Shown: piece by piece, positions 21,247 through 50,714 of the stretch
Layout: each line of letters begins with the position of its first letter
Numbering within the stretch: the stretch's first letter is position 1
From: Oxalobacteraceae bacterium CAVE-383
GTDB taxonomy: Bacteria > Pseudomonadota > Gammaproteobacteria > Burkholderiales > Burkholderiaceae_D
DNA: 64,000 nt
Assembly (NCBI GenBank): GCA_004134995.1
Contig: REGP01000001.1
Span: 186,001 to 250,000 of the forward strand
Direction: 5' to 3'
Notes under the pieces: generated by a model
The model's input: only the letters and a program-made list of their open reading frames with translations
Told to the model about the DNA's origin: nothing
The model's database searches: none
Translations under genes and position numbers: made by a program

Positions 21247-21273
21247 TCGCTGCAATCCACTCCCGGAGACAGA

Positions 21274-23052
21274 ATGAGCCAAATAGAAGTGCAAGTGCCG
21301 GACATCGGCGATTTTGCGGAAGTCGAAGTCATCGAAGTCATGGTCAAGGCCGGCGATACGGTCAAGGTCGATCAATCGCTGCTGACCGTCGAATCCGACA
21401 AGGCCAGCATGGAAATTCCATCCAGCCATGCCGGCGTGGTCAAGGAAGTGAAGGTCAAGGTTGGCGACAAGGTCAAGCAGGGCACGCCGATCATGACAGT
21501 GGAAGCCAGCGGCGCCGCTGCGGCTCCAGCGCCGGCTGCTGCGCCAGCCGCTGCAGCATCGGCGCCTGCTCCAGCCGCCGCTCCCGCAGCAGCAGCACCG
21601 GCCGCCGCCAGCTTCTCCGGCAAGGCCGATATCGAATGCGACACCCTGGTGCTCGGCGCCGGCCCCGGTGGCTATACCGCCGCGTTCCGCGCCGCCGACC
21701 TGGGCCAGAAAGTGGTGCTGGTCGAGCGCTATGCTTCGCTGGGCGGCGTCTGCCTGAATGTCGGCTGTATTCCATCCAAGGCGCTGCTGCATGCGGCCAA
21801 GGTGATTACCGAAGCGGAAGAAATGGCGCATTTCGGCGTCAAGATGTCCAAGCCCGATATCGATATCGACAAACTGCGCGGCTGGAAAGAAAGCGTCGTC
21901 ACCAAGCTGACCGGCGGCCTCGGCGGCCTGGCCAAGGCGCGCAAGGTGCAGGTCGTCACCGGCAAGGGCGCGTTCAGCTCGGCCAATACCCTCACCGTGG
22001 AAACCGCCGAAGGCAGCAAAACCATCGCCTTCAAGAACGCCATCATCGCGGCCGGCTCCTCGGTCGCCAAGATTCCCGGCTTCCCCTACGACGACCCGCG
22101 CCTCATCGATTCCACCGGCGCGCTCGAACTGCGCCAGATCCCGAAAACGATGCTGGTCATCGGCGGCGGCATCATCGGCCTGGAAATGGCCTGCGTGTAC
22201 GACGCGCTCGGCACCAAGGTCACCGTGGTCGAATTCGCCGACGGCCTGATCCCGGCCGCCGACCGCGACATCGTCAAGCCTTTGCAAAAGCGTATCGAAA
22301 AGCGCTACGAAGCCATCTATCTGAAGACCAAGGTCACCAAGCTCGAAGCAATGAAGGAAGGCCTGCGCGCCACCTTCGAAGGCGCCGACGGCAACGGCAG
22401 CGCGCCGAAAGATCCGCAACTGTACGACATGGTGCTGGTGGCGGTGGGCCGCCGTCCGAACGGCAAGGACATCGGCGCCGAGAAGGCCGGCGTGCTGGTC
22501 AACGAGCGCGGCTTCATTCCGGCCGACAAGCAACAGCGCACCAACGTCCCCCACATCTTCGCCATCGGCGACATCTGCGGCGATCCGATGCTGGCGCACA
22601 AGGCCACCAACGAAGCCAAGGTGGCGGCCGAAGTCATCGCCGGCCACAAAGTGGCGTTCGATGCGCTGACCATTCCTTCGGTGGCCTACACCGATCCGGA
22701 AATCGCATGGATGGGCCTGACCGAAACCGAAGCCAAGGCCAAGGGCATCCCGTTCGAAAAAGCCAACTTCCCGTGGGCCGCCAGCGGCCGCGCATTGGCG
22801 ATGGGGCGCGACGACGGCATGACCAAGCTGATCTTCGATCCGAAGACCAAGCGCATCCTCGGCGCCGGCATTGTCGGCGTGAACGCGGGCGAACTGCTGG
22901 CCGAAACCGTGCTGGCGCTGGAAATGGGCGCCGACCTGGAAGACCTGGCGCTGACCGTGCACGCGCATCCGACCCTGTCGGAAACGCCGATGTTCGCCGC
23001 CGAAATGGGGCTGGGCATCATTACGGATCTGTACGTGCCGCAGAAGAAATAA
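21274..23052 (+). CDS. lpdA: Dihydrolipoamide dehydrogenase (E3) with N-terminal lipoyl domain
   Basis: FAD/NAD+ E3 subunit that reoxidises the lipoyl groups, 592 residues. An N-terminal lipoyl domain (about 1-75, lysine in ESDKAS) and an Ala/Pro linker precede the flavoprotein. The redox-active disulfide is in [13 protein letters not shown], the FAD motif is [11 protein letters not shown] and the NAD motif [10 protein letters not shown]; the C-terminal catalytic segment is [10 protein letters not shown]. The lipoyl fusion is known in several betaproteobacteria and Neisseria. Translation starts after cccggaga at 21274; a terminator follows. Confidence 0.97.
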
Positions 23053-28383: not shown

Positions 28384-28474
28384 TGGCGGAGAAAGGGGGA
28401 TTCGAACCCCCGGTAGGCTATGAACCTACACACGCTTTCCAGGCGTGCGACTTAAACCACTCATCCATCTCTCC
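28384..28474 (-). tRNA. tRNA-Ser(GGA)
   Basis: A 91-base class II tRNA on the minus strand with encoded 3' CCA. The acceptor stem is GGAGAGA paired with its complement near the 3' end, the anticodon loop reads CTGGAAA (anticodon GGA), a long variable arm is present, and the T arm contains GGTTCGAATCC. It reads UCC/UCU codons. Confidence 0.97.
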
Positions 28475-28504
28475 TGATTTCGCCTGACTTCTGCGAAGTC
28501 GGCA

Positions 28505-28510
28505 ATTATA
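28505..28510 (-). promoter_or_regulatory. -10 element of the tRNA-Ser promoter
   Basis: A perfect TATAAT (minus strand) lies 31 bases before the mature tRNA 5' end, leaving room for a short leader. The -35 is not clear. Confidence 0.55.
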
Positions 28511-28805
28511 GCAATAAACCGCCCAAAAATAATTGCTTTTCTCCCGAAAAGAGGTGGCTTTATGACTAATTCAGAATAATTCGCTGCTGTGGCCCTTTCT
28601 CTTTACAGTCAACGTAACTCATGGAGACAGAGCTTAATTCTCAATCATCTGAAATAATTCTCCATAATAACTAGAATAGGAATCTTCTTAGTGAATGCAA
28701 TGAATTATCCTATCGATTGTCACTGTAGCCGTTAACTGCCAAATTTTGGCCTTTACATCGTAATTTGGCGACAAGAATATAAAAAAAATAACACGGGGTT
28801 GAAAA
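28511..28805. other. AT-rich left boundary of the defence island
   Basis: About 300 bases without a gene between the tRNA and the HNH endonuclease gene. The base composition changes abruptly here from GC-rich to AT-rich. No integrase, att-like duplication of the tRNA end or inverted repeat was seen; the promoter of the HNH gene should be inside. Confidence 0.5.
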
Positions 28806-29654
28806 ATGGAGCCATTTAATATTGGTCAAGAATATGAACGATCAGAGTTACTCTCATTTGTGGGTAGCAAGCAACAACAAACCGGAGTGATTTGGGGCAA
28901 GAAAGAGCCTGGCTGCATTATCGCCACGTCAGGTGGGCGCCATGGAAAGAAAGTGGGATATTCGGACGAGCGTTTGCAAGATGGAAGTTGGTGGTACTTT
29001 GGGCAAGGCCAGAATGGTGATCATTCTATTAACAATGCTGCTAATGCAAAGCTCGTTAATGGTAAAGAATCCATATTACTATTTACAACCAGAGAACCAA
29101 CTGCCGGTGAAGTGAAGAGCAGGGGAAATTATAAAAAATTATTCGCTTTTCAAGGGGCGTTTAATGTCTCTCACTATGAGGTAGTAATTCCAACATCTGG
29201 ATCTCGTAAAGATCAGAAGCTACTTCGCTTTTTATTTAGTCCAGCAAGTAACATTACCGCTCAAGTAAGTGAGCCGCTTCCTTCTGTATTAGTAGACATT
29301 TCAATATTGCGCCAACAGTTAATCTCATTTGTGCAACCTGATGTGGCGCAAACACGTATTACGTCGGTGGAATATCGTCGGCGCTGTGCCCATGTTCGAA
29401 AATATGCAATTTTACGGGCAAAGGGAAATTGTGAAGCATGTGGCGCTTTGGCGCCATTTGTTGATAGCTCTGGCAATGGTTTTCTAGAGGTACATCATAT
29501 AGTGCGTTTGGCAGATGATGGTATTGACGCGCCATACAATGTGGCTGCGATTTGTCCAAATTGTCACCGAAGAGCACATTATTCTGTCGATCGGGAAAGC
29601 TTTCGGCAGCAGCTTCTGGCCTCAATCTTTGCTATAGAAAATAAAATTTGTTGA
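28806..29654 (+). CDS. HNH endonuclease with unassigned N-terminal domain (putative restriction enzyme)
   Basis: A 282-residue protein. The C-terminal zinc-bound HNH nuclease is clear: C209 and C212 (CEAC), the EVHHI motif with H230/H231, N245, then C250 and C253 with H254 (CPNCH). The N-terminal 130 residues (starting FNIGQEYERSELL, with WWYFGQGQNGDHS in the middle) resemble the compact modification- or DNA-sensing domains found in front of HNH nucleases in type IIM/IV enzymes, but I cannot name the family with certainty. It lies tail-to-tail with a cytosine methyltransferase gene, seven bases between stops, so it may be the restriction partner of that enzyme. The gene is AT-rich and foreign in composition. 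Confidence 0.8.
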   Translation: MEPFNIGQEYERSELLSFVGSKQQQTGVIWGKKEPGCIIATSGGRHGKKVGYSDERLQDGSWWYFGQGQNGDHSINNAANAKLVNGKESILLFTTREPTAGEVKSRGNYKKLFAFQGAFNVSHYEVVIPTSGSRKDQKLLRFLFSPASNITAQVSEPLPSVLVDISILRQQLISFVQPDVAQTRITSVEYRRRCAHVRKYAILRAKGNCEACGALAPFVDSSGNGFLEVHHIVRLADDGIDAPYNVAAICPNCHRRAHYSVDRESFRQQLLASIFAIENKIC

Positions 29655-29661
29655 AAAAAAT

Positions 29662-31002
29662 TCAAGAATTATCTACATTCAACAGATCCCTTTTGCTGGG
29701 TTTGCTGTGTCCTTTTTTTATTGGTGTTTTTAGGGTTTCTTGCAAGGATTCAAGTCGATGAAGTAAGATTTCCCCAATCGCTTCGGACAATAAAGGAGGA
29801 ACGGCATTTCCTACTTGAGTATAACGTGGACATTCTTGTTTCCGTTGTTTCCCGCCTGTAGTGTATTTCTCCTGAAATTCAAACCAGTCTGGGAAGGACT
29901 GAAGGCGTGCGCTTTCCCGTACAGTCAATATTCTTGGTTCGTTGTAGTGAAGAATATCATCTGGTAGCGTTGTTACCGTAGGAGCAGGTAAATCTGGATG
30001 AAGCACTGTTGTTGAATGTTTACGTGTGCCGGCCCTTTTCCGCTCTTCCATAGATAAACAAAATCCAGGGCGGCAAATCTCTTGGACAAGCTTAAAATAT
30101 TTAATGGTTTCTTGCTTATGCTTTGGAAGGCGTCGGCTGTTCGGAATGATGTCGGGTGCCGCGTTGCGCATCAATGCTTGAAATTTGGTTGGTGTTTTGG
30201 GGGGGGCATAAACAGCCTCTTTGAAGCCCTGCGTTGTTGAATCGAGGCAAGGAACAAGTTCACGGCCGCTAATTTCCAAATCGGAAATCGCTTCTTTAGC
30301 GCTAGTTGGCTTGTTGGTTGGCAAGCCATGGTTTTCAAGAAATAATTTACGGCTCTGTTTTAATGCTTCAAAAAGATTAGGGGTTGATGTTTGTTGATCC
30401 TTTCTTTCACAAATCATCAAAAAACGTTGCCGGCTTTGCGGTACACCGAAATCTGCGCAGTTTATTAACCCAACAGAAACCTCATACCCTTGGCTCTTAA
30501 GGCGAGAAGCGATGTATTCCGCATAAGATTTTTTTTCAGTGTCGCCCATTAAAAGTTCAACGCCGCTTTCATTTTCGAACTTCATGTCAAAGCCGGCGAC
30601 GTTTTCAATCACAATGAAGCGAGGTTTTACCAAGCCAACCAAAGCTAGATACTGTTCAGTCATTTTGTTACGAGGATCTGCTGGATTACGTTTTCCCGCC
30701 GTAGAAAACCCTTGGCACGGAGGACCTCCAACAATTAAGTCCACTTGCCCAGACAATTTCCCAACTTTGTTAGCATGGGTCGTAATAAGATCTTCGCATG
30801 TCATTGCTTCTGCTGGTAACCAACTGGGCCAATCGAAATTGTAATCACCATTATTGATTAAGTTATGTTTAAGCGTAGCGAATGCAAGCGGGCTCTTTTC
30901 TACCGCAAATATGCCTTGGCATCCAGCTGACATCAGGCCAAGCGATAAACCCCCGCAACCCGCAAATGCGTCAATAAATTTTAGCGTTGTGCGTGGTTTC
31001 AC
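29662..31002 (-). CDS. DNA (cytosine-5) methyltransferase, Dcm type
   Basis: All major C5-methyltransferase motifs are visible: motif I FIDAFAGCGGLSLGL, motif IV catalytic GGPPCQGFS, motif VI ENVAGF, motif VIII QSRQRF, motif IX RESARLQSFPDW and motif X QVGNAVPPLL. The target recognition domain between VIII and IX does not show its specificity. I prefer a GTG start at 31002 (protein beginning MKPRTTLKF, 446 residues) because AGGA precedes it at good spacing; an upstream GTG at 31080 would add 26 residues. It is divergent from the DptF-like gene and convergent with the HNH gene. Vsr downstream of the operon fits a 5-methylcytosine system. Confidence 0.93.
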   Translation of the reverse strand: MKPRTTLKFIDAFAGCGGLSLGLMSAGCQGIFAVEKSPLAFATLKHNLINNGDYNFDWPSWLPAEAMTCEDLITTHANKVGKLSGQVDLIVGGPPCQGFSTAGKRNPADPRNKMTEQYLALVGLVKPRFIVIENVAGFDMKFENESGVELLMGDTEKKSYAEYIASRLKSQGYEVSVGLINCADFGVPQSRQRFLMICERKDQQTSTPNLFEALKQSRKLFLENHGLPTNKPTSAKEAISDLEISGRELVPCLDSTTQGFKEAVYAPPKTPTKFQALMRNAAPDIIPNSRRLPKHKQETIKYFKLVQEICRPGFCLSMEERKRAGTRKHSTTVLHPDLPAPTVTTLPDDILHYNEPRILTVRESARLQSFPDWFEFQEKYTTGGKQRKQECPRYTQVGNAVPPLLSEAIGEILLHRLESLQETLKTPIKKGHSKPSKRDLLNVDNS

Positions 31003-31186
31003 GATATTCCTATTTTTTATGACTTTAAAATGGTGCTGCCGTGCCGGCGCCCAATTTTGCCATGCTTTTTCAAACCGCACCAGGACAAAATGTACGTTTT
31101 CGTGGCACTATCCATAAATGTAACTTTCTCGAAGGTAAAGGAGAGGTGTCGCTCTGATATTTCCCTTAGGAAAGCAAATCTAATAA

Positions 31187-33184
31187 ATGTCGGGACAAGG
31201 GGATGGCGTGACAAAAAATGTATTGCTCGGTAAGCTTTTGACCTTACAGCAAGACGGTCAAAGTGCTATTAGCGGCCCCTCGAACTGGCTTCAGCCAATC
31301 ATTCTTGAAGTGCAGACCGGCCTACACGAAGTGGTAGATGAGCTTGAGCGTGTAGTAATCCCTGATGCAGAGCAGAGGCAAATGGGGCGATGGCATTTTT
31401 TTGTGGGATCGCCCGGTAACGGCAAATCTGCAGGTGCAGGTGCCTTGGCGCGACGTTTGGATGCACGAGGTGACACCATCCTTGATCATGCGACAAAGAA
31501 GAATCTTCGTGATTTATCTCCATCTGAAGTGCCTTATAGACTGGAGGTTTATAAGGAAGGGCAAAACTTCCCTTACTTGTATATCGCTCAAGATGCATCT
31601 GTATTACCAGACCCATATGATTCCGATGCAGATCCAGCTCTCGCTTTGGAAGAATTGTTAATTGAGGCCGCTCAGCGAGGTGTATCGGTTGTTGTTTGTA
31701 CGAACCGGGGAGTTATTGAACGTGCATTTTCTCGCGGGTATTTAGACCCAGAAAAAAATGGAGAGGGATGGTTTAAGGCTATTCGAATGGCCGTTGGAAC
31801 AGAGTCGCCAGGGTTGATCAACCTAGGGCCGCCACTTCGTAAGCGAGTGTTTGATGAAATCGATGTCGGGGTTACATCGCTTGATCAGCGCAGTATGGTA
31901 CTTGGGTCAGATATCCTTGACCGCCTTATTTTGACGGCAATTGAAGCTCCTGAGTGGGAAGCCTGCAATGGATGTGCTTCCAAAGGGATGTGTCCGTTTC
32001 GGGCGAATCGTGATTGGTTGGTCAATCCAGAGCTTCGTAAAAATGTACTCAGATTATTTCTCCATGCAGAACTCTACGATGGCCAAGTAATTGTTCTTCG
32101 AGAAGCCCTAGCTTTAATTTCACTTTTGCTAGCGGGGTGTCCTCATGATTACAATTCTGGTCCGTGTGATTGGGTGCATCAACGCCTTGATGCTGGAGAC
32201 ATATTTGCATTGGCAAGTCGGCGGCTATATATGGTCTTGTTCTCGTCGTATTCGCCATCAGGATTGGCAATAGATAGAGAGGATCGAGAGATACAAATCG
32301 ATGATCTGAAATCATTGTCCAAAGCAGGAGCCGGCACAAACGATCATACCAATCGATCTTTAAAATTTGTTGTTAGTGGGAGGCACGGCACATCCACTGA
32401 TGTCGGCGTTCAACGCCTGTTAGGAAGAGGACGGGTATTTTCCGCACTAGATCCATTTGCGGATGTCTTGCCCTCAGATTTCCTTGATCGTTGGAATGAA
32501 TCTTGGACTGAATTAGAAAGCGGGAAAGAGTGGCTTAGCAATATCGAACGAGCATGTTTTGCATGTTGGGATGATATGCAAAAAGCTGCAGCTGCTTCAT
32601 TAGATTCCTCGCCGACGGTATATCGGTGGCTTACTCGATGGATTACCTCATTTACACTACGTGCTGGTGCTCTCGTTGAAGGGATTACGACATTCGGAGA
32701 TGACCTTGATGAGCTGGCTAGCATCTTGAGCATCAGCGGTCCACCGAACGCGCAGCAAATGGTGCTTTTACAAAAAATAGAAACGACTTTAGCTCATAGC
32801 TTAAATCCCGCGAGTGAAGGCTTAATGTTGTCCCCGACGACAAGCTTACATGGGGATTGGGCGAAGCAAGCACTCAAACCCCAAGTGTCGACTGGCGGCG
32901 ATCGAGCGATCACAGCACATCTCACATTTGGTGATCCAAATGGGGTGAAGATTCCGATGAGCACTCGTGCCTTTATATGGCTTAAGCGAAAGGCAGAGCG
33001 GGCTATGGCATCTGAGACATTCCCAAATGAGTATTTAGAAACGGCGCGCGATGCAATGCTTCGGGTAGCTGTGACTTCTGCATATGACACAAAGGACGGT
33101 ATCGAAATAAAGGTAACGCGCGCGACCGGGTCCACTATACAAATAAAACGATCCCATGGAGGCATGTTCATCGATGTCATCTAA
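31187..33184 (+). CDS. DptF-like P-loop ATPase of a DndFGH-type restriction triad
   Basis: A 665-residue ATPase. Walker A GSPGNGKS is at residues 74-81, and a zinc-finger-like CNGC...CPF with cysteines near 260, 263 and 269 follows, a combination I associate with DptF/DndF. DptF proteins I know of are shorter (about 550-600), so this is a divergent or extended member. It begins an operon of three genes; the next start overlaps its end. An alternative GTG start at 31208 has a better ribosome site (aggggat). Family assignment rests on motif order and on the size pattern of the operon, not on a database search. Expected role is the ATP-dependent partner in restriction of unmarked DNA. Confidence 0.68.
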   Translation: MSGQGDGVTKNVLLGKLLTLQQDGQSAISGPSNWLQPIILEVQTGLHEVVDELERVVIPDAEQRQMGRWHFFVGSPGNGKSAGAGALARRLDARGDTILDHATKKNLRDLSPSEVPYRLEVYKEGQNFPYLYIAQDASVLPDPYDSDADPALALEELLIEAAQRGVSVVVCTNRGVIERAFSRGYLDPEKNGEGWFKAIRMAVGTESPGLINLGPPLRKRVFDEIDVGVTSLDQRSMVLGSDILDRLILTAIEAPEWEACNGCASKGMCPFRANRDWLVNPELRKNVLRLFLHAELYDGQVIVLREALALISLLLAGCPHDYNSGPCDWVHQRLDAGDIFALASRRLYMVLFSSYSPSGLAIDREDREIQIDDLKSLSKAGAGTNDHTNRSLKFVVSGRHGTSTDVGVQRLLGRGRVFSALDPFADVLPSDFLDRWNESWTELESGKEWLSNIERACFACWDDMQKAAAASLDSSPTVYRWLTRWITSFTLRAGALVEGITTFGDDLDELASILSISGPPNAQQMVLLQKIETTLAHSLNPASEGLMLSPTTSLHGDWAKQALKPQVSTGGDRAITAHLTFGDPNGVKIPMSTRAFIWLKRKAERAMASETFPNEYLETARDAMLRVAVTSAYDTKDGIEIKVTRATGSTIQIKRSHGGMFIDVI

Positions 33185-34745
33185 TCTAGAAACGCCAACA
33201 CTGGATCAAATTTTAGCTGACGCTGATAAGTCAGTATTTGAGCCGACCGTTCCGAATTTATTTAAGAGATCTGCATTTTTTATTAACACGGTTGGTATGC
33301 GAGAAGCTCCGGAACGCCTGGTACTCGAATTATTTCGTGAAATTTCGTTCGAGAATATGCGGCCCTTAACCGAAACAAAGGCCCGAGATCTAATGCCCCG
33401 TGAAGGACAGGTTTTAGAAGAGTTAGCTTTATTGCATATTGCCCGCGGCCGTGGGAAACGTAAAAGAGATAAACTCAATAATTCAACATATTTTGGTCCG
33501 CTATATCCAGAACTCGCTCGCAATGCTTGGCCGCGTAAACAGGCTGAACGGGTAGTTGCATACCAACTTATTGATCGCCCGCTTGCGCAATACATTTTGG
33601 ACAAGCGAGAAGATCCTAGTGCTTACGCTAGAGATATCGTTACTGCAATGACCGGGAAGCCACGATCAGCAGATCCACGTCCAGATGCTTTAAAGGAAGC
33701 ATTGAATCGCATCCAGATCGATCGCACAGAGGCCGGTCTCCTCGATGAATCGCAAGCAATAGAAAAACTGGCCGATCGATTTAGTGCGGCCAAAGGTTCA
33801 ATTCTTGATTGCGGATTTCCTGATCAGTTGGCTGAGCGGTTAGCCAAAGATTTTCAAAATTTGTGCAAATTAGAGGGACATGTCCCAAGGCTTCTTTGGA
33901 TTGATCTTTTAAAGTGTTTTCTTCGTATGGCGCTTCCGACATGGTTGCTCGCCCATATGCGGCTAACAGTAAGTCTTCGTGATTGGACGCTTACTGCACT
34001 CGGTGGAATCGTCACTGATGACGAAAAAATCCTTCATGAAATTAAAAACAGATGGCAAGGTATTTTTCACCCGACTCAAACCGGTTCGAATGAGATCTCC
34101 CTGCATATTGAACGATATGTTAAGGCTCGGATTGAGCTTAGTTTGCTGACATATTGGGTACGAGGCATTCTTGGGCCGCAGTCGATTGATGCTACGTTAA
34201 CGGTCCGTTCGACTGGCAAAGATAATTTATCGATTTCAGATTGGCTAACGCGGTGCCGACAAGCCGGCGAAAACATTGGCCTTAGTGGTGATGGGCAGAG
34301 TATACGAACTAAAGTTATTCCGATGGCACAAGCTTTTGGCGCTTGGTTGAATCCTTCTACAAAAGGCCAGGGGAAAAATATAGAAGAATTTCTTCGGATA
34401 CTTCTTCGTTTGCCCGATTCGGATGAGGATGATGGCTATCTGCTGACCGGCACAAAAAAAGGTGGGTTCCAGCGAGTCGTAGTTTTCCCAGGCCCCGCTG
34501 TGCTCAAGACAATGCTTTATTTGGTAGCTGCAGAAAAAATGCGCGGGGCTATAAAGACCAGAGGGAAGTTAGTTTTATCTGATCTTGAAAATCATTTTTC
34601 TAAATATGGTGTTGACTTTGCTTCAAGCGTGGGTGCTCGACCGCAATTGATTTCCGAACTGTCCCGGCTGGGATTTTTGAAGGGAAGTCCTGATGCGGGC
34701 GATAGTGCTGAACTAATTGTGCCAGATATAACTGAGTTTAAATAA
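33174..34745 (+). CDS. DptG-like middle subunit of the triad
   Basis: A 523-residue protein with no classical catalytic motif visible. It is mainly helical with many charged residues. Its identification as DptG-like comes from its place between a DptF-like ATPase and a DptH-like HerA/FtsK ATPase and from the translational coupling: the start at 33174 overlaps the upstream stop by 11 bases, with GGAGG at 33158-33162. An ATG at 33156 in the same frame is possible. It is a weak call if taken alone; a profile search against DptG would decide. Confidence 0.55.
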   Translation: MSSNLETPTLDQILADADKSVFEPTVPNLFKRSAFFINTVGMREAPERLVLELFREISFENMRPLTETKARDLMPREGQVLEELALLHIARGRGKRKRDKLNNSTYFGPLYPELARNAWPRKQAERVVAYQLIDRPLAQYILDKREDPSAYARDIVTAMTGKPRSADPRPDALKEALNRIQIDRTEAGLLDESQAIEKLADRFSAAKGSILDCGFPDQLAERLAKDFQNLCKLEGHVPRLLWIDLLKCFLRMALPTWLLAHMRLTVSLRDWTLTALGGIVTDDEKILHEIKNRWQGIFHPTQTGSNEISLHIERYVKARIELSLLTYWVRGILGPQSIDATLTVRSTGKDNLSISDWLTRCRQAGENIGLSGDGQSIRTKVIPMAQAFGAWLNPSTKGQGKNIEEFLRILLRLPDSDEDDGYLLTGTKKGGFQRVVVFPGPAVLKTMLYLVAAEKMRGAIKTRGKLVLSDLENHFSKYGVDFASSVGARPQLISELSRLGFLKGSPDAGDSAELIVPDITEFK

Positions 34746-34760
34746 TCTTGGATGTGATTG

Positions 34761-37700
34761 ATGACAAACGTGCTGATTGAGACTTTGGCTCGCCTGGTGC
34801 GACTGTATTTTGACGAACTGAAGTCGGGAGGGGTGGAGTGCCGGCTGGTCTTGCCTGCCTTGACCGAACGGATTGCGATTGGCCTTCAGGATGCTTTAGT
34901 TAAGGATGATCTTCCTTCGTACCTTGTGGTTCCGCGCTCTCAGGAAACGAGTAAGGCACTTCGTTGGATTAGGGCAGAGGGCGTTACGAGTGTACGCCAA
35001 GGCGATATGATCGTTATAGTCTGGCCAGGTGAAATGTCGAGGATTCAAGATTCAGTAATTGGTGCTGGTGGCGCGATGAGGAATTTCGCATTTAGCGATG
35101 AATGGCCATGGCTAGATACCAGTAATGAATACTTTCGTTTCGATGGCCCAGTTTTGTCGGAAATTTTGACCCGCTGGGGTGTGCGCGCTGAAAGCGTTGG
35201 TGCCTATTCCATGATTCTGGTTGCGGCTCTTGATACATGTCGCGACTCGTTGCTAAGAGGCGTCGTGTATCTAGATCAAATGATCGGTGCCTTTGACCCG
35301 CAGACCCCCACCTCAATCGATAATGACATCAAGCGGCTTTTATTTCACTTAGGGATTCCATTACCTAATCGTGTGGAATGGTCTGAAAAAGGATCTGCAA
35401 AAAAATTCTTTACTGAAACACGAGGTGTCATCAGAGAGATGTCATTGCGTGTCCGTGATACGGATGGAAAGCAAGAGCTGTTATTACGCATTCCTGACAT
35501 TGAACCAGATACAGAAATTTCCTCAAAGTTGGCAAAGTCATTTGAGAAAATTATTGATTCTTTTATGACGCGTGGGGATGATCGACAAGAAGGCCTTTTA
35601 GCGCTGCATGGATGTTGGGAAGATACTGAAGCGTGGAACGATTGGACTTTATCCCGGCTTCAGGCGCTGCTGGACGTAGCTCCTACGGAAGAGCATGTAA
35701 TTGTTACGTGTGATATTGAAGTAAGTAGCGGGGTGGTAGCGCAAGACGGAAAATCTGCTGTTCTCATTGAAGGTGGCTTTGTCAAATTTTCAGTGAATTA
35801 TGAAGGACTTGTTGTTGATTCAACTGATAATGAAATACGGATTTTTGATCGAGCTAGATTATTGTTTAGCGCAAATTGTATTGGGACAGGTGGCCAGATC
35901 CAAACAGAAATTCATCATGATCTGCTCTTCGGCCAAAGTATTACGGGGAAAAAGAAGAGCTTGAGAATAGTTGTTGCCCGGGGTAAAAATGAACTCGCAA
36001 CTGCCCGCGCTACAGTTATTCCATGCGGGCCTAATCAGCCACTTATCGCGATTCTAGAACCAGGTTTTAAATATTATTTTGGTAAACAGCCAATTCTTGG
36101 CGCGGATCCTAGTGATGAAATTGAAAAGATTGAAGTCGGTGAGCCGGTGCAAATTACTCTCACAGCTTGGGATGGATACGAAGATGGGGAAATTGATGTC
36201 GACGATGAGCCAATTTTTTTAGAAAAAAACTCGGAAAATCCGCGGATTTTTTTATTCCCTAAAGCCATTGATCCGGGCATGTCTGGTACTGGGCGTTCAA
36301 ATGTCAATATACGTATTTCTGGTTTGGAAATAGATATTGATATTGAAGCCAAGAATATTACCCGTGGCGAGTTTACGCTTGAGCGAGAGTTAATCGTCCA
36401 ACTTACTGCAATGTCACAAGCAACTGGACATCGTTCAGCGGTAAGCCGAATAGTGGGAATATTTTCGGGTGAGAAGACAGAGTCTTATCCCGGCTTAGGC
36501 GGCTTGGATGATTCCACAAGATCTCGCATAAGGTTTGCCAGATTTTTTGAGACGATTGCAAACGGTCGCCCAATTATCGCAAATTTGCTTCAGGAAAATG
36601 TGTTAGGCGCGGAGCCACTTGATAGCCCATTTGCGTTGTGTGACGGCGGCGCATTGCCCGCACCATTTCATGGCGCGACAATTGGTGCAGAAGTTGTAGC
36701 ATTAATAGATAGTTATGCCGTAGCTCGGAAAACGGTACTTGATATTGTTTGTGAGGGAGCTCGTACCGATTCGCCATGGCCATACTACGCACAGTTACCT
36801 ATTCTTATTGATACCAAGCGTCGTCGTTTGGAGGACGCTATTTTTGCGTACTTAAAAGCTTATTCAGAAATTCTTATTTATGTTCGTCAGAAATTAGTGG
36901 AGTTATCCTGGGCGGAACTGTTTCGCCTTACATGCGTAGATTGTATTGTCCACTGGGAAGACGGGGCGCGAGCTCGTAAAATAATTTTGATTGGTCCTTG
37001 GCATCCAATCGTTGTCTCAAAACGTTTTATGGTCCAGTCCGCGCTATTGACTAGCGCACGTCGCCATCTTGGGCTAAAAGGCGACGGAAAGGCTCATGTT
37101 TTGGCGTTGTTGTTGGATCAGGTAAATGCATTGAGATGGTTTTCATCACCCGCGTCAGATGGAACGACTTTTGAGAGCTATTACGTGACATCTACATCTG
37201 ATCCTGGGTGGTTGGTCGCCATGACACACGATACCGTTGGAGGCGCTGACTATCTGTCATTTACGACAGGCCTTAGGCGCCTTCACGGATTGGAAACCGG
37301 CATGATGCCATCATCCCGCGATCAAGTTGCTAAAGGCTATCTTCAAGATTTTTTTAATGCATATCCAACGCGACGAGCTATTTCCGTTATCGCCGACGAG
37401 TCTTATTCACCGGCTCGCCTTGTCGAATCTGCACAAGCGCTTTTGTATGATGGAGAGAGTACATCAATAGTTGGAAGGCAATTGCCAGGTGGGATTCACA
37501 TCGCGGTTGCGGGCGAACGCGATTTGGATGCTCAGGAATGGAGAGAGCCGCCAGTATGCCTATATGGCGTCACTGACGTTGCGACAACCAGTCTCCAGTT
37601 TACTGACATCCATCTAATTTCCCCAGGGCGTGCGAAATCGACGCGTGACTCAGGGGACAGGGTTTCGTTACCAAGGGGACGTGGATTGCTGGCGGCGTTT

Positions 37701-40316
37701 TCCAGTCCAATTAAACAGGTCGGTGCATGGGCTGATGGAGTATTAAATTCGCGAGCATTTGAACGTGATTCCCTCACAGATTCCAGCGATTCGCTTGGGG
37801 ATATTTTTACCCAAGTGTGCAGCAGGCTCGCCAGTCTACCTGGAGAGGAAAGAGTGATGAGTTGGCAGGCAGATTTGCCTCCGACTCTTGATCATCTTTG
37901 GACGGTAATACCTGGGAATCACGTTGATCCAGCAGTATTTGTAAGGTATGTCACTGATGCTACTAAACGTGGAGAGAGCACGGCTTTATGGGATTACAGC
38001 ATGAGCCTCACTGGGGCTCTTAATAGTTATTTTGTTTTATCTCGCATTCCGGAAAGTGTGTCACATGAATTGAACAAAAGTTCTGTCTTGGGAGGGAAAC
38101 CACTTGCTCCTGCTGTTTTGGGGGAATTGGGACGAGTAGGGATGGCGTTAGGCAGCGAGAGCCTACGTTCAGGGAGCAAGGCTTTAGGCGTGATTGGCGT
38201 CGTTGCAGCGGTTAGATTATTCTTGCCAATCAATGCCAATAGCGCACCAATACGAAACGGTCGTTGCCTTCGCGGTTTCCTTTTACCAGTTGATTCATTC
38301 AAAGAGATTTTAGGCGGTTCGTTAGACAGCAAAGAGCCGGGGCAACGTCAAAGGGCTGATTTGGTAGCAATACAACTTGGATTACTAGATGATGGGTATG
38401 TAGGCATTTCCTGTTGCGCGATTGAATGCAAATACAGTAGTAATCCATTTGGTGCGGAGCTGATTAACGCTGCTTTGCAGCAAGCGGGTGCAACCCTAAG
38501 GCGCATTCAGGAATTACTTGAAATATCCCAAATAAATTCTGGAATACCTGAACGACTAGCATTGCAGTCTCTCATCTCATTTGGCCTGCGCCTTTCACAG
38601 GAGCAATTGGATGGCGATACGGCCGCGCATGCTGCTGTTGAGGCGGAAATACTTCAACGGATACTTGACGGAAAAATCAAAATTATTTTGCCTCGGGCCG
38701 GCAAAATCGTTGTAATTACGGATTGCAATGTTTCATCGGCTTCATGGACTCATGGACAAGGTCTGGTTATTAAGGTTGGTCCCGGACACTGGCCGGGAAT
38801 ATCTGAATCCAAGGAATTGCAAAGTGTCCGAGACCGTTTGTCGCAGGAATTCAATCCGATATTTGATGAAGTTGAGAAAGTTTCAGGATGTACGGAACAG
38901 GGTACGAAAAAACCTGATGCAGCGGGAATCGAGGAGCCCAATACACATATTAAGCCCGACGATCTGCCTAGTTCTCCAAATAACCAAAATATCGAAAGTC
39001 AGGGCGAATCGAAAGCCGAAATCACGAGTGCCGATTCTAATGGTAAGAAAGCGATAGATAAGGGTTTGATAGCTCCGATAGGTCCGCTCCGCCCTATCCT
39101 TCTAGGAACTGCTAATGGGCCTAAGTTTTTTTATGATCCTCAGAACCGTGAGACACCGCTCGATAACTACAATGTGATGGTTACAGGTTCTTCTGGCAAA
39201 GGGAAGACCCAGCTAATAAAGACGATCGTGTCCCGTTTAAGAGAACAGGACCGTAACGTATTACTGCTTGATTTTAAAAATGATTTTGCTAGCGATGAGC
39301 ATTTTGTTAAGAAAGCACGACTTCATCCCCAGTACGTGACGTTTGATGGACTTCCCTTTAATCCCTTAATACCTGTTCCGTTACGTAGGCCTGGATCACC
39401 TAAAGAATACTTACCAATCTCGGAGCATATTAATGGCTTGGTTGACATTTTCAAGAAGACTTTTGGTTTAGGTGACCAGCAGGAAGTGGCAGTAAAAAAT
39501 GCAATACGAGATTGTTTTGAGGCAAAAGGAATCCAGCCTAGGGGAACGGTAGAAGTAAGCGTCGATCTAGACTATCCAGATTTTAATGATGTTGGCGAAA
39601 GACTTCTTGAAACCAATCCAAATGCCTATAATCGTTTAGACCCATTGTTTGACCTTGGAATTTTTCCACCGAGTTCTCGTTTGACCCGATTTGATTCTAT
39701 GTTGGACGATTCTGTGGTCGTGGATCTCAGTCAGATACAAAGCGATAGAATCAAAAATGCGGTTGCAAAAATTCTTGTGATGTCTGCACATCGTTATTAC
39801 AACGCAAGAGAGCATTCTGGTCACTTACGCCAATTTTTTGCCTTTGATGAAGCCCATCGAGTACTGGATTCGGAATTTCTTTTACAGTTTGTGCGGGAAT
39901 GTCGGGCCTATGGGGTTGGTGTTTTACTTTCTTCGCAATACCCTACAGATTTTCCTGCTGATGTATCAGCTTCTTTGAATACGAAGATATTGCATGGAAA
40001 TGGCGCTGATCGTGATCGTGTTCGAGATATCACGAAGTTGATAGGGGGGGCGCTTCCTGATGACCAAATTGTACAGTTATCACTGTTTCAAGCTATCGTT
40101 TCCAATCCACAATATCTTCCGGCGGTTGTTAAGACTATTGGTTATCCAACGATGCTTGTGTTTGATGCTATTAGAGAGTTGGAAGGCATTTCGAGGTCTG
40201 AATTGTTGGTTGAGGGGATTGATGCCGCTAGATTAAATATTGATTATCTAATTTCGACTTTGTTAGAGATGGGAATGATCGTCGAAATATCGGGGCTACT
40301 TCACGTGCAGAATTAA
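34761..40316 (+). CDS. DptH-like giant HerA/FtsK ATPase with embedded PD-(D/E)XK-like motif
   Basis: An 1851-residue protein. The C-terminal HerA/FtsK-type motor has Walker A GSSGKGKT at 1476-1483 and Walker B FDEAH at 1695-1699, followed by LSSQYPTDFP, typical of HerA-like DNA translocases and of DptH. Before it, a charged, probably disordered linker (about 1370-1435) separates a large N-terminal region of about 1200 residues without recognised domain. At D1200 ... E1222-C-K1224 (ADLVAIQ ... AIECKYSS) there is a pattern typical of PD-(D/E)XK nucleases, which would make it motor plus nuclease. The ATG at 34761 is chosen over the adjacent in-frame TTG. The gene lies 15 bases after the DptG-like stop. 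Confidence 0.7.
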   Translation: MTNVLIETLARLVRLYFDELKSGGVECRLVLPALTERIAIGLQDALVKDDLPSYLVVPRSQETSKALRWIRAEGVTSVRQGDMIVIVWPGEMSRIQDSVIGAGGAMRNFAFSDEWPWLDTSNEYFRFDGPVLSEILTRWGVRAESVGAYSMILVAALDTCRDSLLRGVVYLDQMIGAFDPQTPTSIDNDIKRLLFHLGIPLPNRVEWSEKGSAKKFFTETRGVIREMSLRVRDTDGKQELLLRIPDIEPDTEISSKLAKSFEKIIDSFMTRGDDRQEGLLALHGCWEDTEAWNDWTLSRLQALLDVAPTEEHVIVTCDIEVSSGVVAQDGKSAVLIEGGFVKFSVNYEGLVVDSTDNEIRIFDRARLLFSANCIGTGGQIQTEIHHDLLFGQSITGKKKSLRIVVARGKNELATARATVIPCGPNQPLIAILEPGFKYYFGKQPILGADPSDEIEKIEVGEPVQITLTAWDGYEDGEIDVDDEPIFLEKNSENPRIFLFPKAIDPGMSGTGRSNVNIRISGLEIDIDIEAKNITRGEFTLERELIVQLTAMSQATGHRSAVSRIVGIFSGEKTESYPGLGGLDDSTRSRIRFARFFETIANGRPIIANLLQENVLGAEPLDSPFALCDGGALPAPFHGATIGAEVVALIDSYAVARKTVLDIVCEGARTDSPWPYYAQLPILIDTKRRRLEDAIFAYLKAYSEILIYVRQKLVELSWAELFRLTCVDCIVHWEDGARARKIILIGPWHPIVVSKRFMVQSALLTSARRHLGLKGDGKAHVLALLLDQVNALRWFSSPASDGTTFESYYVTSTSDPGWLVAMTHDTVGGADYLSFTTGLRRLHGLETGMMPSSRDQVAKGYLQDFFNAYPTRRAISVIADESYSPARLVESAQALLYDGESTSIVGRQLPGGIHIAVAGERDLDAQEWREPPVCLYGVTDVATTSLQFTDIHLISPGRAKSTRDSGDRVSLPRGRGLLAAFSSPIKQVGAWADGVLNSRAFERDSLTDSSDSLGDIFTQVCSRLASLPGEERVMSWQADLPPTLDHLWTVIPGNHVDPAVFVRYVTDATKRGESTALWDYSMSLTGALNSYFVLSRIPESVSHELNKSSVLGGKPLAPAVLGELGRVGMALGSESLRSGSKALGVIGVVAAVRLFLPINANSAPIRNGRCLRGFLLPVDSFKEILGGSLDSKEPGQRQRADLVAIQLGLLDDGYVGISCCAIECKYSSNPFGAELINAALQQAGATLRRIQELLEISQINSGIPERLALQSLISFGLRLSQEQLDGDTAAHAAVEAEILQRILDGKIKIILPRAGKIVVITDCNVSSASWTHGQGLVIKVGPGHWPGISESKELQSVRDRLSQEFNPIFDEVEKVSGCTEQGTKKPDAAGIEEPNTHIKPDDLPSSPNNQNIESQGESKAEITSADSNGKKAIDKGLIAPIGPLRPILLGTANGPKFFYDPQNRETPLDNYNVMVTGSSGKGKTQLIKTIVSRLREQDRNVLLLDFKNDFASDEHFVKKARLHPQYVTFDGLPFNPLIPVPLRRPGSPKEYLPISEHINGLVDIFKKTFGLGDQQEVAVKNAIRDCFEAKGIQPRGTVEVSVDLDYPDFNDVGERLLETNPNAYNRLDPLFDLGIFPPSSRLTRFDSMLDDSVVVDLSQIQSDRIKNAVAKILVMSAHRYYNAREHSGHLRQFFAFDEAHRVLDSEFLLQFVRECRAYGVGVLLSSQYPTDFPADVSASLNTKILHGNGADRDRVRDITKLIGGALPDDQIVQLSLFQAIVSNPQYLPAVVKTIGYPTMLVFDAIRELEGISRSELLVEGIDAARLNIDYLISTLLEMGMIVEISGLLHVQN

Positions 40317-40486
40317 TCAATTTTTATTGCTTCCCGCTGTTGCTCATTAGAAGTAAGAAGAATTTCCCATAGAACTACTGGCGAAAGATAGCAGCCTTTT
40401 TCTCTCGCATTCTGAAATGCCTTTGTTGTAATAGCATCTTGGATGTTGCGCTCCCAAAAAATAGATGCGCTGGAGGCAAGTATTAT
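40313..40486 (-). pseudogene. Decayed gene fragment on the minus strand
   Basis: An open stretch of 57 codons ending with TAA that shares bases with the DptH-like stop. It has no start codon and is cut off upstream by TGA. The conceptual peptide (ASSASIFWERNIQDA, then KGCYLSPVVLWEILLTS) has a gene-like composition and resembles the beginning of a small PIN-like or unknown protein. The surrounding 237 bases between the DptH-like gene and vsr hold no other gene. It may be the remains of a former component; chance is not excluded. Confidence 0.35.
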
Positions 40487-40553
40487 TCATTATTCTAATT
40501 TTAAATATTTATAACGCCATTTATAAATTATTTATCAACGCACTTATACAAAA

Positions 40554-40955
40554 ATGGAAGTTGATCAAGCTAAACGTAGCATCATCATGTCTAGTATTAA
40601 AGCAAAGAATACGAAGCCTGAGTTGGCTGTGAGGCGTATCGCATTTGCTCTCGGATATAGATATCGATTACATCGCAACGATTTGCCGGGAAAGCCAGAC
40701 ATTGTATTTCCACGTTTGCGCAAGATCATTTTGGTGCACGGTTGTTTTTGGCATCAACATCGATGTCAAGGAGGGCGGCTTCCTTCTTCAAATATAGAAT
40801 ATTGGATACCAAAACTCAAAAAAAATTTGGAGCGGGATAAAAATACGATAAAGATGCTCAAAAGACTGGGATGGAAATGTTTGGTGATTTGGGAATGTCA
40901 GCTTGAAAAGCCCGCACAGGTTAGGTCTCGAATCCAAAGATTCCTTGCCACGTAG
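40554..40955 (+). CDS. vsr: Very short patch repair endonuclease Vsr
   Basis: A 133-residue Vsr that nicks 5' of the T in T:G mismatches formed by deamination of 5-methylcytosine. The residues match E. coli Vsr with an offset of two: catalytic D49 (LPGKPDIVF), H62 and C64, H67, H69 and C71 in the VHGCFWHQHRC block, and C115 (WECQ) completing the zinc site. Vsr genes travel with cytosine-C5 methyltransferases, so this one belongs functionally with the methyltransferase at 29662-31002, although the DptFGH-like operon lies between them. Ribosome site weak; AT-rich. Confidence 0.93.
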   Translation: MEVDQAKRSIIMSSIKAKNTKPELAVRRIAFALGYRYRLHRNDLPGKPDIVFPRLRKIILVHGCFWHQHRCQGGRLPSSNIEYWIPKLKKNLERDKNTIKMLKRLGWKCLVIWECQLEKPAQVRSRIQRFLAT

Positions 40956-41213
40956 CTCATATCAACATTCGTCTTCAGAGACAATTCTGCCCGTGACATA
41001 TCGCGGGCGAGTTGCAGATACTGACATGGCGATTTGATGTCATCCGGACACTTTCTTAAATAAGGTACATGTACTCTAGATAAGATTGGGTGATGCTGGA
41101 ATCATGTGGGGGTGCCAAATTTTTCAAAGCACCGTCAATCAAAAATACTCGTCAGCCTTGGCAACGCGATACGAGACATTTGACTCGTCCCCAAAGCCCA
41201 ATCAGGAATAACC

Positions 41214-41720
41214 ATGCCAGCCAAGATCCATACGCTTAAAAACTCCGCAGAACTCAGCGCCTTAACAACATCAAACCTCGCCGCAGCGATGTCCCATTCC
41301 GCCAGAAGAGAATATAAACCCGTCGACAATGAATTCAGTTTTCTCAAGCTCCCCTTCGTATCTAGACGAAAGCATGGCTCTCAAACCAGCAGCAACTGGT
41401 CCGTCCCTCTAATCGATGACTACGCCCAAGCATGCGACATCGGCCGCGAATACGCCGCCCACTTCGTACAATACCTAAAAGATAATCCAGATATGTGCGG
41501 CGCAAATTCGCTTGGTCACATTGCCAGCAATATTGATTTTAAGGATGAATCGGACGCACAAGGTTATTGGGTAGGATTCTTCTCCCATCTGGAAAGAATC
41601 ATCTTTGCACAAGCCCAGCGCATGGACGTCTTTGACGATATAGACAGAATCAACGCATATTATGCAAAGGGCACCGATGCTGAAGAGTTTTTTGCAGATT
41701 TGGATAAAGCCGATCACTGA
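41214..41720 (+). CDS. Unrecognised 168-residue protein
   Basis: No family recognised. The protein is soluble, acidic towards the C-terminus (DAEEFFADLDKADH), with no signal peptide or membrane segment. A well-placed AGGA precedes the ATG at 41214. Composition is intermediate between the AT-rich island to its left and the GC-rich genes to its right, so it may mark the island edge. The 258 bases before it (40956-41213) hold nothing I can name. Confidence 0.6.
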   Translation: MPAKIHTLKNSAELSALTTSNLAAAMSHSARREYKPVDNEFSFLKLPFVSRRKHGSQTSSNWSVPLIDDYAQACDIGREYAAHFVQYLKDNPDMCGANSLGHIASNIDFKDESDAQGYWVGFFSHLERIIFAQAQRMDVFDDIDRINAYYAKGTDAEEFFADLDKADH

Positions 41721-41767
41721 TGACTTCGGTGCTGTCATCCCCAATCCGACAGCACCAAATCACACAC

Positions 41768-46742: not shown

Positions 46743-46874
46743 GCAGAAATGACAAAGAGCGCCCGAAAGCGCCCTGAATTTTCGGATACGGCAAGCTTGT
46801 CATCGCTTCTGCCAATCCGGCTTTCCATATGCCAATGGCGGTGGAAAGTCTCACAAGCCCCAAATGGGAACGCG
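46743..46874 (-). repeat. Dispersed ~132-bp structured element, copy 1 (candidate ncRNA)
   Basis: A sequence nearly the same as 50518-50650. On the minus strand it contains a stem closed by CTTTCCA/TGGAAAG with an inner GCC/GGC pair (copy 2 has AGC/GCT), and ends in a GC hairpin followed by TTTGTCATTT. Changes between copies keep base pairing and include a one-base indel that breaks any reading frame, so RNA or DNA structure is favoured over a small protein. It lies 13 bases beyond the hicB stop. Confidence 0.65.
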
Positions 46875-46887
46875 AGCATTGTAATGC

Positions 46888-50517: not shown

Positions 50518-50650
50518 GCAGAAATGACAAAGGGCGCCTCGAAGGCGCCCCAAATTCTCGGAGACGGCAAGCTTGTCATCGCTTCTGCCGATCCGGCTTT
50601 CCACATGCTGATAGCTATGGAAAGTCTCACAAGCCCCAAATGGGAACGCG
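50518..50650 (-). repeat. Dispersed ~132-bp structured element, copy 2 (candidate ncRNA)
   Basis: Second copy of the element at 46743-46874, 133 bases, with a perfect GGGCGCC / GGCGCCC hairpin near its minus-strand 3' end. It lies 64 bases beyond the stop of the minus-strand PemK-like gene, a position like that of copy 1 beyond hicB. Confidence 0.65.
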
Positions 50651-50714
50651 CCCAGTATAGCAAATGCTAAACTTTTTGTTTAATAAATAAATTGCTTTAT
50701 GGCTGGTAGGATTG

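What the first reader, a model, noticed from the sequence alone, without database searches (positions are those of the whole stretch)
28806..40955. DptFGH-like restriction triad with a cytosine methyltransferase, HNH nuclease and Vsr in place of phosphorothioation genes
Three coupled genes (665, about 523 and 1851 residues) show the size pattern and motifs of DptF-DptG-DptH: P-loop GSPGNGKS plus CxxC..C zinc motif in the first, HerA/FtsK motor in the last. In known Dnd systems FGH restricts DNA lacking phosphorothioate, and FGH without the modification genes damages the host. No dnd or ssp modification genes occur in the window; instead a Dcm-type methyltransferase is divergent from the triad, and Vsr follows it. 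This suggests 5-methylcytosine as self-mark for a DptFGH-like effector. Seen: genes and motifs. Inference: functional linkage.
Basis: partly seen in the sequence, partly recalled or inferred. Interest (0 to 1): 0.88.

Follow-up and report, generated by a model that had tools for sequence, protein, structure and literature searches.

The report
Cytosine-methylation-coupled DndFGH-like restriction system
A mobile bacterial defence island pairs a three-protein DNA-cutting machine, so far known from systems that mark their own DNA with sulphur, with an ordinary cytosine methyltransferase and its repair enzyme, which suggests that the same kind of machine can use a methyl mark to tell self from foreign DNA.

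Summary
A low-GC island (45% against 58-61% in the flanks) carries an HNH gene, a divergent C5-cytosine methyltransferase, a coupled F-G-H triad and Vsr. The triad is remotely homologous to DndFGH: clearly in H, moderately in F, weakly in G. H keeps the PD-(D/E)XK nuclease residues and HerA motifs. The genome's only PAPS-reductase-type genes are cysH and cysD, so it has no DndC/SspD-type phosphorothioation gene; the methyltransferase is its only C5 enzyme. I found 12 triads of this clade (window, a Tn7-associated copy, plasmids, a viral-collection contig, other genomes). All 12 lie 3-498 bp from a C5-methyltransferase, 9 have Vsr, and none matched DndB/C/D/E in the stretch examined. The methyltransferases are polyphyletic (6 gains or losses on the tree). 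Of 14 other Dnd/Ssp-type triads one has a C5-methyltransferase: a bona fide SspFGH, again with Vsr. The HNH gene is not conserved. Best reading: an ATP-dependent restriction-modification system with 5mC as self-mark, Vsr guarding the sites against deamination. That function is inferred, not tested. I found no description in the paper searches made.

The parts
28500..41760 (.). Low-GC acquired island holding the whole set (edges approximate)
   Evidence: GC 0.451 against 0.609 (1-28400) and 0.575 (42000-64000); sister system in L002 lies beside Tn7-like tnsA/B/C/D genes
28806..29654 (+). HNH endonuclease of McrA type with a possible N-terminal SRA-like domain; accessory, not conserved with the triad
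   Evidence: Pfam HNH 1.2e-8, SAD_SRA 0.0067 (below cut-off); PADLOC mREase_IV 2e-18; PDB 6ghc, 5-methylcytosine-specific restriction enzyme A, 1e-17 over the HNH part; no relative in the other 11 triad loci
29662..31080 (-). C5-cytosine DNA methyltransferase (M), divergent from F; the only one in the genome
   Evidence: Pfam DNA_methylase 1.2e-51; motifs intact; single PF00145 match in G000
31187..33184 (+). F: DndF/SspF-like P-loop NTPase with CxxC...C (probably zinc-binding) insert
   Evidence: hhalign to DndF 6e-6 over 247 columns; PADLOC SspF 2e-6 over about 100 residues
33156..34745 (+). G: DndG-like subunit with probable C-terminal winged helix (likely start 33174)
   Evidence: hhalign to DndG 8.5e-4, residues 442-518, collinear; pLDDT 48-79 by 10-residue blocks from residue 441, three helices and two short strands; no known family
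34758..40316 (+). H: DndH-like protein with PD-(D/E)XK nuclease (D1201, E1223-C-K1225) and C-terminal HerA/FtsK ATPase (likely start ATG 34761)
   Evidence: PADLOC DndH 2e-28 over the HerA part; hhalign 1e-49 to DndH; nuclease residues aligned to DndH in 12 of 12 triads; PDB 7es4 DptH 2e-11 with the profile A3
40554..40955 (+). Vsr: T:G mismatch endonuclease for deaminated 5mC
   Evidence: Pfam Vsr 6.6e-29, TIGR00632 2.6e-42; Vsr present in 9 of 12 triad loci
41214..41720 (+). 168-aa protein of unknown family inside the same low-GC block; membership unclear
   Evidence: no Pfam, PADLOC or NCBIfam match; GC about 0.47; no relative in the other 11 triad loci

Best explanation
It is a mobile, ATP-dependent restriction-modification system in which 5-methylcytosine, not phosphorothioate, is the self-mark. 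M methylates cytosine at a specific sequence throughout the host genome. F, G and H form one complex, as is reported for DndFGH: G (winged helix) and the N-terminal part of H read DNA, the HerA motor of H moves along it, F binds nucleotide, and the PD-(D/E)XK domain of H nicks or cuts DNA unless methylated sites restrain it. Vsr repairs T:G mismatches left by deamination of 5mC, so the protected sites are not lost from the host genome. Shown here: the genes, the homologies (weak for G), the conserved catalytic residues, the recurrent pairing and the absence of DndC-type genes. Inferred: the complex, the restraint by 5mC, the cleavage and the role of Vsr.
For: C5-MTase adjacent in 12 of 12 triads of this clade, 3-498 bp away, although F, G and H of 10 of the other 11 loci are only 18-26% identical to the window's. 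All 12 were found or found again with F, G or H queries, so the count does not rest on MTase queries. The 13 triad-linked MTases are polyphyletic, 6 gains or losses, all forced by supported branches; L117 carries two C5-MTases of different lineages, and L116 has, between F and its intact enzyme, an 84-aa degenerate fragment that matches the P0002-type profile. Vsr in 9 of 12. No match to Aliivibrio DndB/C/D/E in the stretches of the 12 loci, and no DndC-like gene in 7 of 7 whole genomes tested, one of them the SspFGH-type genome. Controls: C5-MTase and Vsr in 0 of 8 DndFGH plasmid loci, 4 of which carry dnd genes, and C5-MTase in 0 of 5 other Ssp/Dnd-type triads; the one other triad with a C5-MTase is a real SspFGH, also with Vsr. 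Nuclease D...ExK in 12 of 12. Papers: SspFGH damages unmodified DNA and is toxic without its modification genes (PMC8092258, passages); DndFGH is in some cases toxic without modification (PMC12707154, passages).
Against: No experiment. G matches DndG only weakly (8.5e-4, HH probability 24%), F has HH probability 85%, and the F and G values drop to 0.0019 and 0.066 without the window and L002 rows. Close relatives of M occur without the triad; in 6 of 9 such viral contigs inspected they adjoin a GHKL-type and a receiver-type protein, so these MTases also serve other partners. On the MTase tree the triad-linked enzymes are more clustered than shuffled labels (6 changes against a mean of 12.3), so part of the pairing is plain co-inheritance. 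Rakesh et al. argue that DndFGH works alone with several sensors and needs no modification module (PMC10853773, abstract, sections 19-22 and passages). A review passage says that none of the single dndF, dndG or dndH deletions fully abolished restriction (PMC12707154), against a strict three-part complex. The McrA-like HNH gene beside M could be a 5mC-dependent nuclease, awkward next to a 5mC writer.
Confidence: 0.72

Rival explanations
1. F-G-H is a standalone counter-invader machine triggered by phage nucleotides or proteins, as proposed for DndFGH; M and Vsr are a separate solitary methylation-repair pair that shares the island.
For: DndFGH is often found without modification genes (PMC10853773, passages); 4 of 8 control DndFGH plasmid loci show no dnd gene in the stretch fetched; M relatives live without the triad; a Vsr-like protein can stabilise a solitary C5-MTase (PMC12907096, abstract and passages).
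Against: 12 of 12 triads keep a C5-MTase, of several lineages and on either side of the triad; mere hitchhiking would not be expected to keep a C5 enzyme through such exchanges.
Confidence: 0.14
2. 5mC is an activating signal: F-G-H is switched on by methylated or hemimethylated DNA, as SspE is by phosphorothioate, and attacks in a context-dependent way.
For: SspE needs the modification for its activity (PMC8092258 passages); the island also holds a McrA-like HNH gene.
Against: The FGH-type effectors described in the passages read are restrained, not activated, by their mark; the HNH gene is not conserved with the triad.
Confidence: 0.07
3. The restriction partner of M is Vsr or the HNH enzyme (a small Type II-like set) and F-G-H is unrelated cargo.
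For: M lies tail to tail with HNH (7 bp apart) and Vsr is in 9 of 12 loci; loss of a C5-MTase provokes Vsr-dependent damage in Caulobacter (PMC12907096 abstract).
Against: M-F and H-Vsr gaps are at most 47 bp in L016, L018, L041 and L117, and L006, L022/L024 and L115 keep M and the triad without Vsr in the stretch; no P0001 relative is in the other 11 loci.
Confidence: 0.05

Closest known systems
DndFGH / DptFGH with DndABCDE
   Same: Three-gene order, similar sizes, P-loop F, H with PD-(D/E)XK nuclease and HerA motor; remote homology, strong in H
   Different: No DndC-type gene in the genome; 5mC MTase and Vsr instead; no match to TIGR03236/03237/03238
SspBCD-SspFGH
   Same: Same layout; F weakly matches SspF (2e-6); in L137 a real SspFGH also sits beside a C5-MTase and Vsr
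   Different: G and H of the window match no SspG/SspH model; no PAPS-reductase-type gene beyond cysH/cysD in the genome
paraMORC/HEF_HK + Response_reg_2 + C5-MTase modules (PMC8011034)
   Same: C5-MTases close to P0002 or L006_M serve what looks like this module, and Vsr is reported with it (passages)
   Different: A GHKL ATPase and a receiver protein, no F-G-H; L115 carries both modules
CxC ABC-ATPase/DndE systems with cytosine methylases (PMC10853773)
   Same: Cytosine methylation proposed in place of phosphorothioate in a Dnd-related system (passages)
   Different: That concerns the DndD/E modification core, not the FGH restriction triad
Dcm-Vsr (very short patch repair)
   Same: C5-MTase with a Vsr endonuclease
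   Different: Here tied to a large ATP-dependent triad

Membership tests
DndFGH/DptFGH (strict) | Operon of three genes F-G-H (control loci fetched here: F 532-812, G 438-520, H 1675-1776 aa) | tested here: met
   665/529/1852 aa, overlapping or 12 bp apart; G and H a little longer than these controls
DndFGH/DptFGH (strict) | Match to the curated DptF, DptG, DptH models | tested here: not met
   No TIGR03238/03236/03237 hit for P0003-P0005; control Aliivibrio proteins hit all three
DndFGH/DptFGH (strict) | Homology of F and H by profile comparison | tested here: met
   F 6e-6 (0.0019 without window and L002), H 1e-49, H without HerA 7e-5; controls 0.28-0.89
DndFGH/DptFGH (strict) | G with DndG-type winged-helix fold | tested here: inconclusive
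   8.5e-4 over residues 442-518, 0.066 without window and L002; AlphaFold mean pLDDT 37, best in the last 85 residues
DndFGH/DptFGH (strict) | Nuclease D...ExK and HerA Walker motifs in H | tested here: met
   12 of 12 triads aligned with 6 DndH sequences
DndFGH/DptFGH (strict) | Phosphorothioate modification partner | tested here: not met
   Only cysH/cysD in own genome; no match to Aliivibrio DndB/C/D/E in 12 of 12 loci (this single-sequence search missed one annotated DndE in control L124)
SspFGH | SspF, SspG, SspH model matches | tested here: not met
   SspF 2e-6 only, over about 100 residues; no SspG or SspH
SspFGH | SspBCD partner | tested here: not met
   No PAPS-reductase-type gene (SspD class) beyond cysH/cysD; SspB and SspC were not searched for
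5mC restriction-modification system | Active C5-MTase | tested here: inconclusive
   The five motifs looked for are present; methylation not measured
5mC restriction-modification system | Restriction activity blocked by the cognate methylation | not testable with these tools
   Needs phage plating or in vitro cleavage
Very short patch repair (Vsr) | Vsr family match and a C5-MTase partner | tested here: met
   TIGR00632 2.6e-42 over its cut-off; the only C5-MTase of the genome is about 9.5 kb away in the same island

The most novel reading that the evidence does not exclude
A 5mC-coupled branch of FGH systems exists beside the phosphorothioate ones, and the FGH machine is indifferent to the chemistry of the mark: any modification that alters its own target site (sulphur in the backbone or methyl on C5) restrains it. 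The modifying enzyme can therefore be exchanged freely, which explains the polyphyletic C5-MTases, the C5-MTase plus Vsr beside a bona fide SspFGH, and perhaps why FGH modules so often seem to lack a modification module.
Probability: 0.4. Interest if true: 0.87.

Novelty: new variant of a known kind. Interest (0 to 1): 0.74.

Why it matters
How FGH effectors tell self from foreign DNA is unresolved: only 10-15% of the consensus sites are reported to carry phosphorothioate, and FGH genes often lack modification genes (PMC10853773 passages). A version with an ordinary C5-methyltransferase makes the question testable with standard methylation tools, and would show that the self-mark of a large ATP-dependent nuclease complex can be exchanged. 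G matched no PADLOC model in the proteins tried and F matched weakly or not at all, so such systems are probably under-counted.

Tried and rejected
Not a plain Type II system: in the window no conventional restriction gene adjoins M except the non-conserved HNH gene, and the triad keeps a C5-MTase where HNH and Vsr are absent. HNH as a core part: rejected (L006 has an unrelated HNH_4 protein). Integration of the island into the tRNA-Ser 3' end: not supported; no direct repeat of 16 nt or more involves the tRNA, and in the 7 single-contig genus mates the metallopeptidase and tRNA-Ser matches lie far apart. The models of P0001 (mean pLDDT 32) and G (mean 37) were too poor for a fold search, so none was run. 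Viral scans with A2, with L022 G and with P0001 gave no relative. Plasmids searched with P0003 alone: no match; the order searched with P0004 alone: only the window's own genome, 1 of 399.

Rows dropped before counting: G851 (E 1.4e-5, three stops; the only profile hit in the fetched region is a 290-aa ORF that looks like a sugar-nucleotide transferase, recalled) and G1139 (E 9.6e-5, no F/G/H hit in the 4.3-kb contig); L139 (F-like gene at a contig end, no full triad); L161 (weak 9.2e-4 hit, no triad), L159 and L162 (cut by contig ends). Among the 14 comparison triads: L123 gave no DndH hit in its stretch; L158 has two genes between G and H and is cut inside H by my own stretch, so a gene beyond H could not be seen; in L160 only F matched a profile and G and H are judged by size and place. 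The contrast 12 of 12 against 1 of 14 gives a one-sided Fisher probability of about 1.3e-6 by my own arithmetic; related loci make this optimistic. Supplementary files of PMC10853773 were not available, and subscription papers were not searched.
Full report
OBSERVATION. Between about 28.5 and 41.8 kb GC falls to 0.451, against 0.609 on the left and 0.575 on the right, so HNH, M, F, G, H, Vsr and a 168-aa unknown form one acquired block. A tRNA-Ser lies at its left edge.

THE PROTEINS. M is a C5-cytosine methyltransferase with the motifs looked for and is the only PF00145 match in the 4.12-Mb, 98.97%-complete genome. Vsr passes the TIGR00632 cut-off. H matches PADLOC DndH at 2e-28 over its HerA part, and its relatives in L018 and L115 match DndH at 3e-71 and 3e-79 over the nuclease and HerA parts together. 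F matches SspF at 2e-6. G matches no family. One-to-one profile comparison of 7 of our loci with three DndF/G/H sets gives F 6e-6 (HH probability 85%), H 1.3e-49, H without HerA 6.9e-5 (63%) and G 8.5e-4 (24%); five off-diagonal comparisons gave 0.4-0.89 and four column-shuffled controls 0.28-0.7. Left without the window and L002 rows, F falls to 0.0019 and G to 0.066, while H stays at 3.6e-39. The nuclease residues (D...ExK) and the Walker motifs are kept in 12 of 12 H proteins of the clade, in register with six DndH sequences. The HNH protein resembles McrA in its HNH part (PDB 6ghc, 1e-17); an SRA domain is suggested but below cut-off (0.0067). AlphaFold gave poor models of P0001 (mean pLDDT 32) and of G (37; best in the last 85 residues).

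NO PHOSPHOROTHIOATION GENES. PF01507 has two matches in the genome, cysH and cysD of one cluster. A true DndC matches PF01507 at 2e-7, so it should have been seen; SspD was not tried as a control. Six further genomes (five with triads of the clade, plus the SspFGH one) give nine matches, all CysH or CysD by comparison with the window genome's own proteins and none matching DndC.

SURVEY. The G profile finds the clade in 2 of 398 phylum genomes, 2 real of 3 hits in 369 class genomes, 4 real of 5 hits in 145 family genomes and 1 of 78 genomes of the order of G437; these sets overlap and the first three include the window's genome. P0004 alone found only itself in 399 genomes of the order. In 72,556 plasmid records P0003 alone finds nothing, while the L018 F and L006 G proteins both find the same 4 records; L006 itself was first found with the window's H. 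IMG/VR gave one contig. With L002 (Janthinobacterium) this makes 12 loci: window, L002, L006, L016, L017, L018, L022/L024, L041, L115, L116, L117, L118. All 12 adjoin a C5-MTase, 3-498 bp away. Nine have Vsr; L006, L022/L024 and L115 have none in the stretch. None matched Aliivibrio DndB/C/D/E. The order M-F-G-H-Vsr on one strand is seen in L016, L017, L018, L041, L116 and L117; M-F-G-H without Vsr in L022/L024 and L115; F-G-H-M-Vsr in L118; M after H in L006; the window and L002 have M divergent, and in L002 Vsr is on the opposite strand. Against the window, L002 is 75-80% identical; the other 10 loci are 18-26%, so the association is old or repeatedly formed.

REPEATED PAIRING. A tree of 90 C5-MTases (13 triad-linked, 76 others from IMG/VR and L019; the IMG/VR set is the best 80 of a capped list) needs 6 gains or losses of the triad label, all forced by supported branches, and none of 200 bootstrap trees makes the triad-linked enzymes one clade; shuffled labels need 12.3 on average, so the label is also clustered. 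L117 carries two C5-MTases of different lineages. L116 has an 84-aa degenerate fragment matching the P0002-type profile between F and an intact enzyme of another lineage. Against an exclusive link: of 9 viral contigs inspected with related MTases but no triad, 6 (L028-L031, L033, L051) have a GHKL-type and a receiver-type gene next to or near the MTase (confirmed by Pfam in L051 and, for the same pair, in L115; by resemblance in the rest), a module described in PMC8011034 (passages). L115 carries both modules. L028, L029 and L067 end shortly after the MTase, so a triad beyond the end cannot be ruled out there.

CONTROLS. Eight plasmid records with a strict DptF relative, all that one search found: C5-MTase and Vsr in 0 of 8, dnd modification genes in 4 of 8. 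SspF model in 168 phylum genomes: 7 hits, all 7 fetched, C5-MTase in 0 of 7; G489 has a PP-loop gene upstream, as expected for SspBCD. From the earlier F search (5 of 398 genomes), L138 has no C5-MTase in its 20 kb, while L137 is a true SspFGH (SspF 4e-42, SspH 5e-90) followed by a C5-MTase and Vsr, in a genome without a DndC-like gene. Counting triads not cut off by contig ends, C5-MTase is in 12 of 12 of this clade and in 1 of 14 others (8 Dnd controls, L137, L138, L156, L157, L158, L160, with the caveats under Tried and rejected).

MECHANISM. FGH effectors are reported to damage DNA lacking the mark and, at least in some cases, to harm cells without it (PMC8092258 passages; PMC12707154 passages). 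With a C5-MTase in place of the mark-making genes at 12 of 12 loci, the simplest reading is that 5mC takes the role of phosphorothioate. Vsr then has its usual role, repairing T:G mismatches at M's sites. Both steps are inference. The main rival is the standalone model for DndFGH (PMC10853773; I saw the abstract, sections 19-22 and passages), which would leave M as a passenger; a C5 enzyme being kept through changes of MTase lineage speaks against it.

NOVELTY. Paper searches (25 of 86, 20 of 21, 15 of 24, 9 of 9, 2 of 2, 6 of 6 and 6 of 12 papers listed, judged by title and start of abstract) showed no description of an FGH triad with a C5-MTase and Vsr. [quoted passage not shown] PMC12839542 was seen in passages only. 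The system is therefore filed as a new variant of a known kind: it looks and probably works like DndFGH or SspFGH but fails their partner and curated-model tests.

Noticed in passing
L137:8686-19325 (G678): A bona fide SspFGH triad (SspF 4e-42, SspH 5e-90) followed by a C5-MTase and Vsr, with no DndC-like gene in the genome: the same pairing in another FGH family.
   Followed up: partly
L115:35-14266 (G893): One locus combines the F-G-H triad, a C5-MTase, a GHKL ATPase and a receiver-like protein, so both partner modules of these MTases sit together.
   Followed up: partly
L028-L031, L033, L051: C5-MTases related to P0002 in viral contigs adjoin a GHKL-type and a receiver-type gene, in L051 also a PNKP-type phosphatase.
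   Followed up: partly
L002:5-7833 and 20566-21865: The Janthinobacterium system lies beside Tn7-like tnsA/B/C/D genes, with a dUTPase/DCD-like and a cytidine-deaminase-like gene on the other side.
   Followed up: no
L006:5829-11202: H is split: a 164-residue ORF matching its N-terminus is followed by a separate ORF for the rest.
   Followed up: no
L022:17161-19734: F carries an N-terminal extension of about 150 residues that reminded me (recalled; no Pfam match) of MvaI/BcnI-type restriction enzymes.
   Followed up: no
L007:1-11080: Priestia dptFGH beside an AlwI-family restriction gene, with no dnd modification genes in the stretch.
   Followed up: no
window 46743-46883 and 50518-50659: A direct repeat of about 140 bases (87% over 120) flanks a region with an Oxygenase-NA gene and MlaC; an HNH_5 gene lies in a second GC dip at 51.0-52.5 kb.
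   Followed up: no
window 28384-28474: tRNA-Ser(GGA) beside the island; in the 7 single-contig genus mates the neighbouring metallopeptidase and the tRNA match at places far apart.
   Followed up: partly
window 41214-41720: 168-aa protein of no known family inside the low-GC block, after Vsr; not found in the other 11 triad loci.
   Followed up: partly
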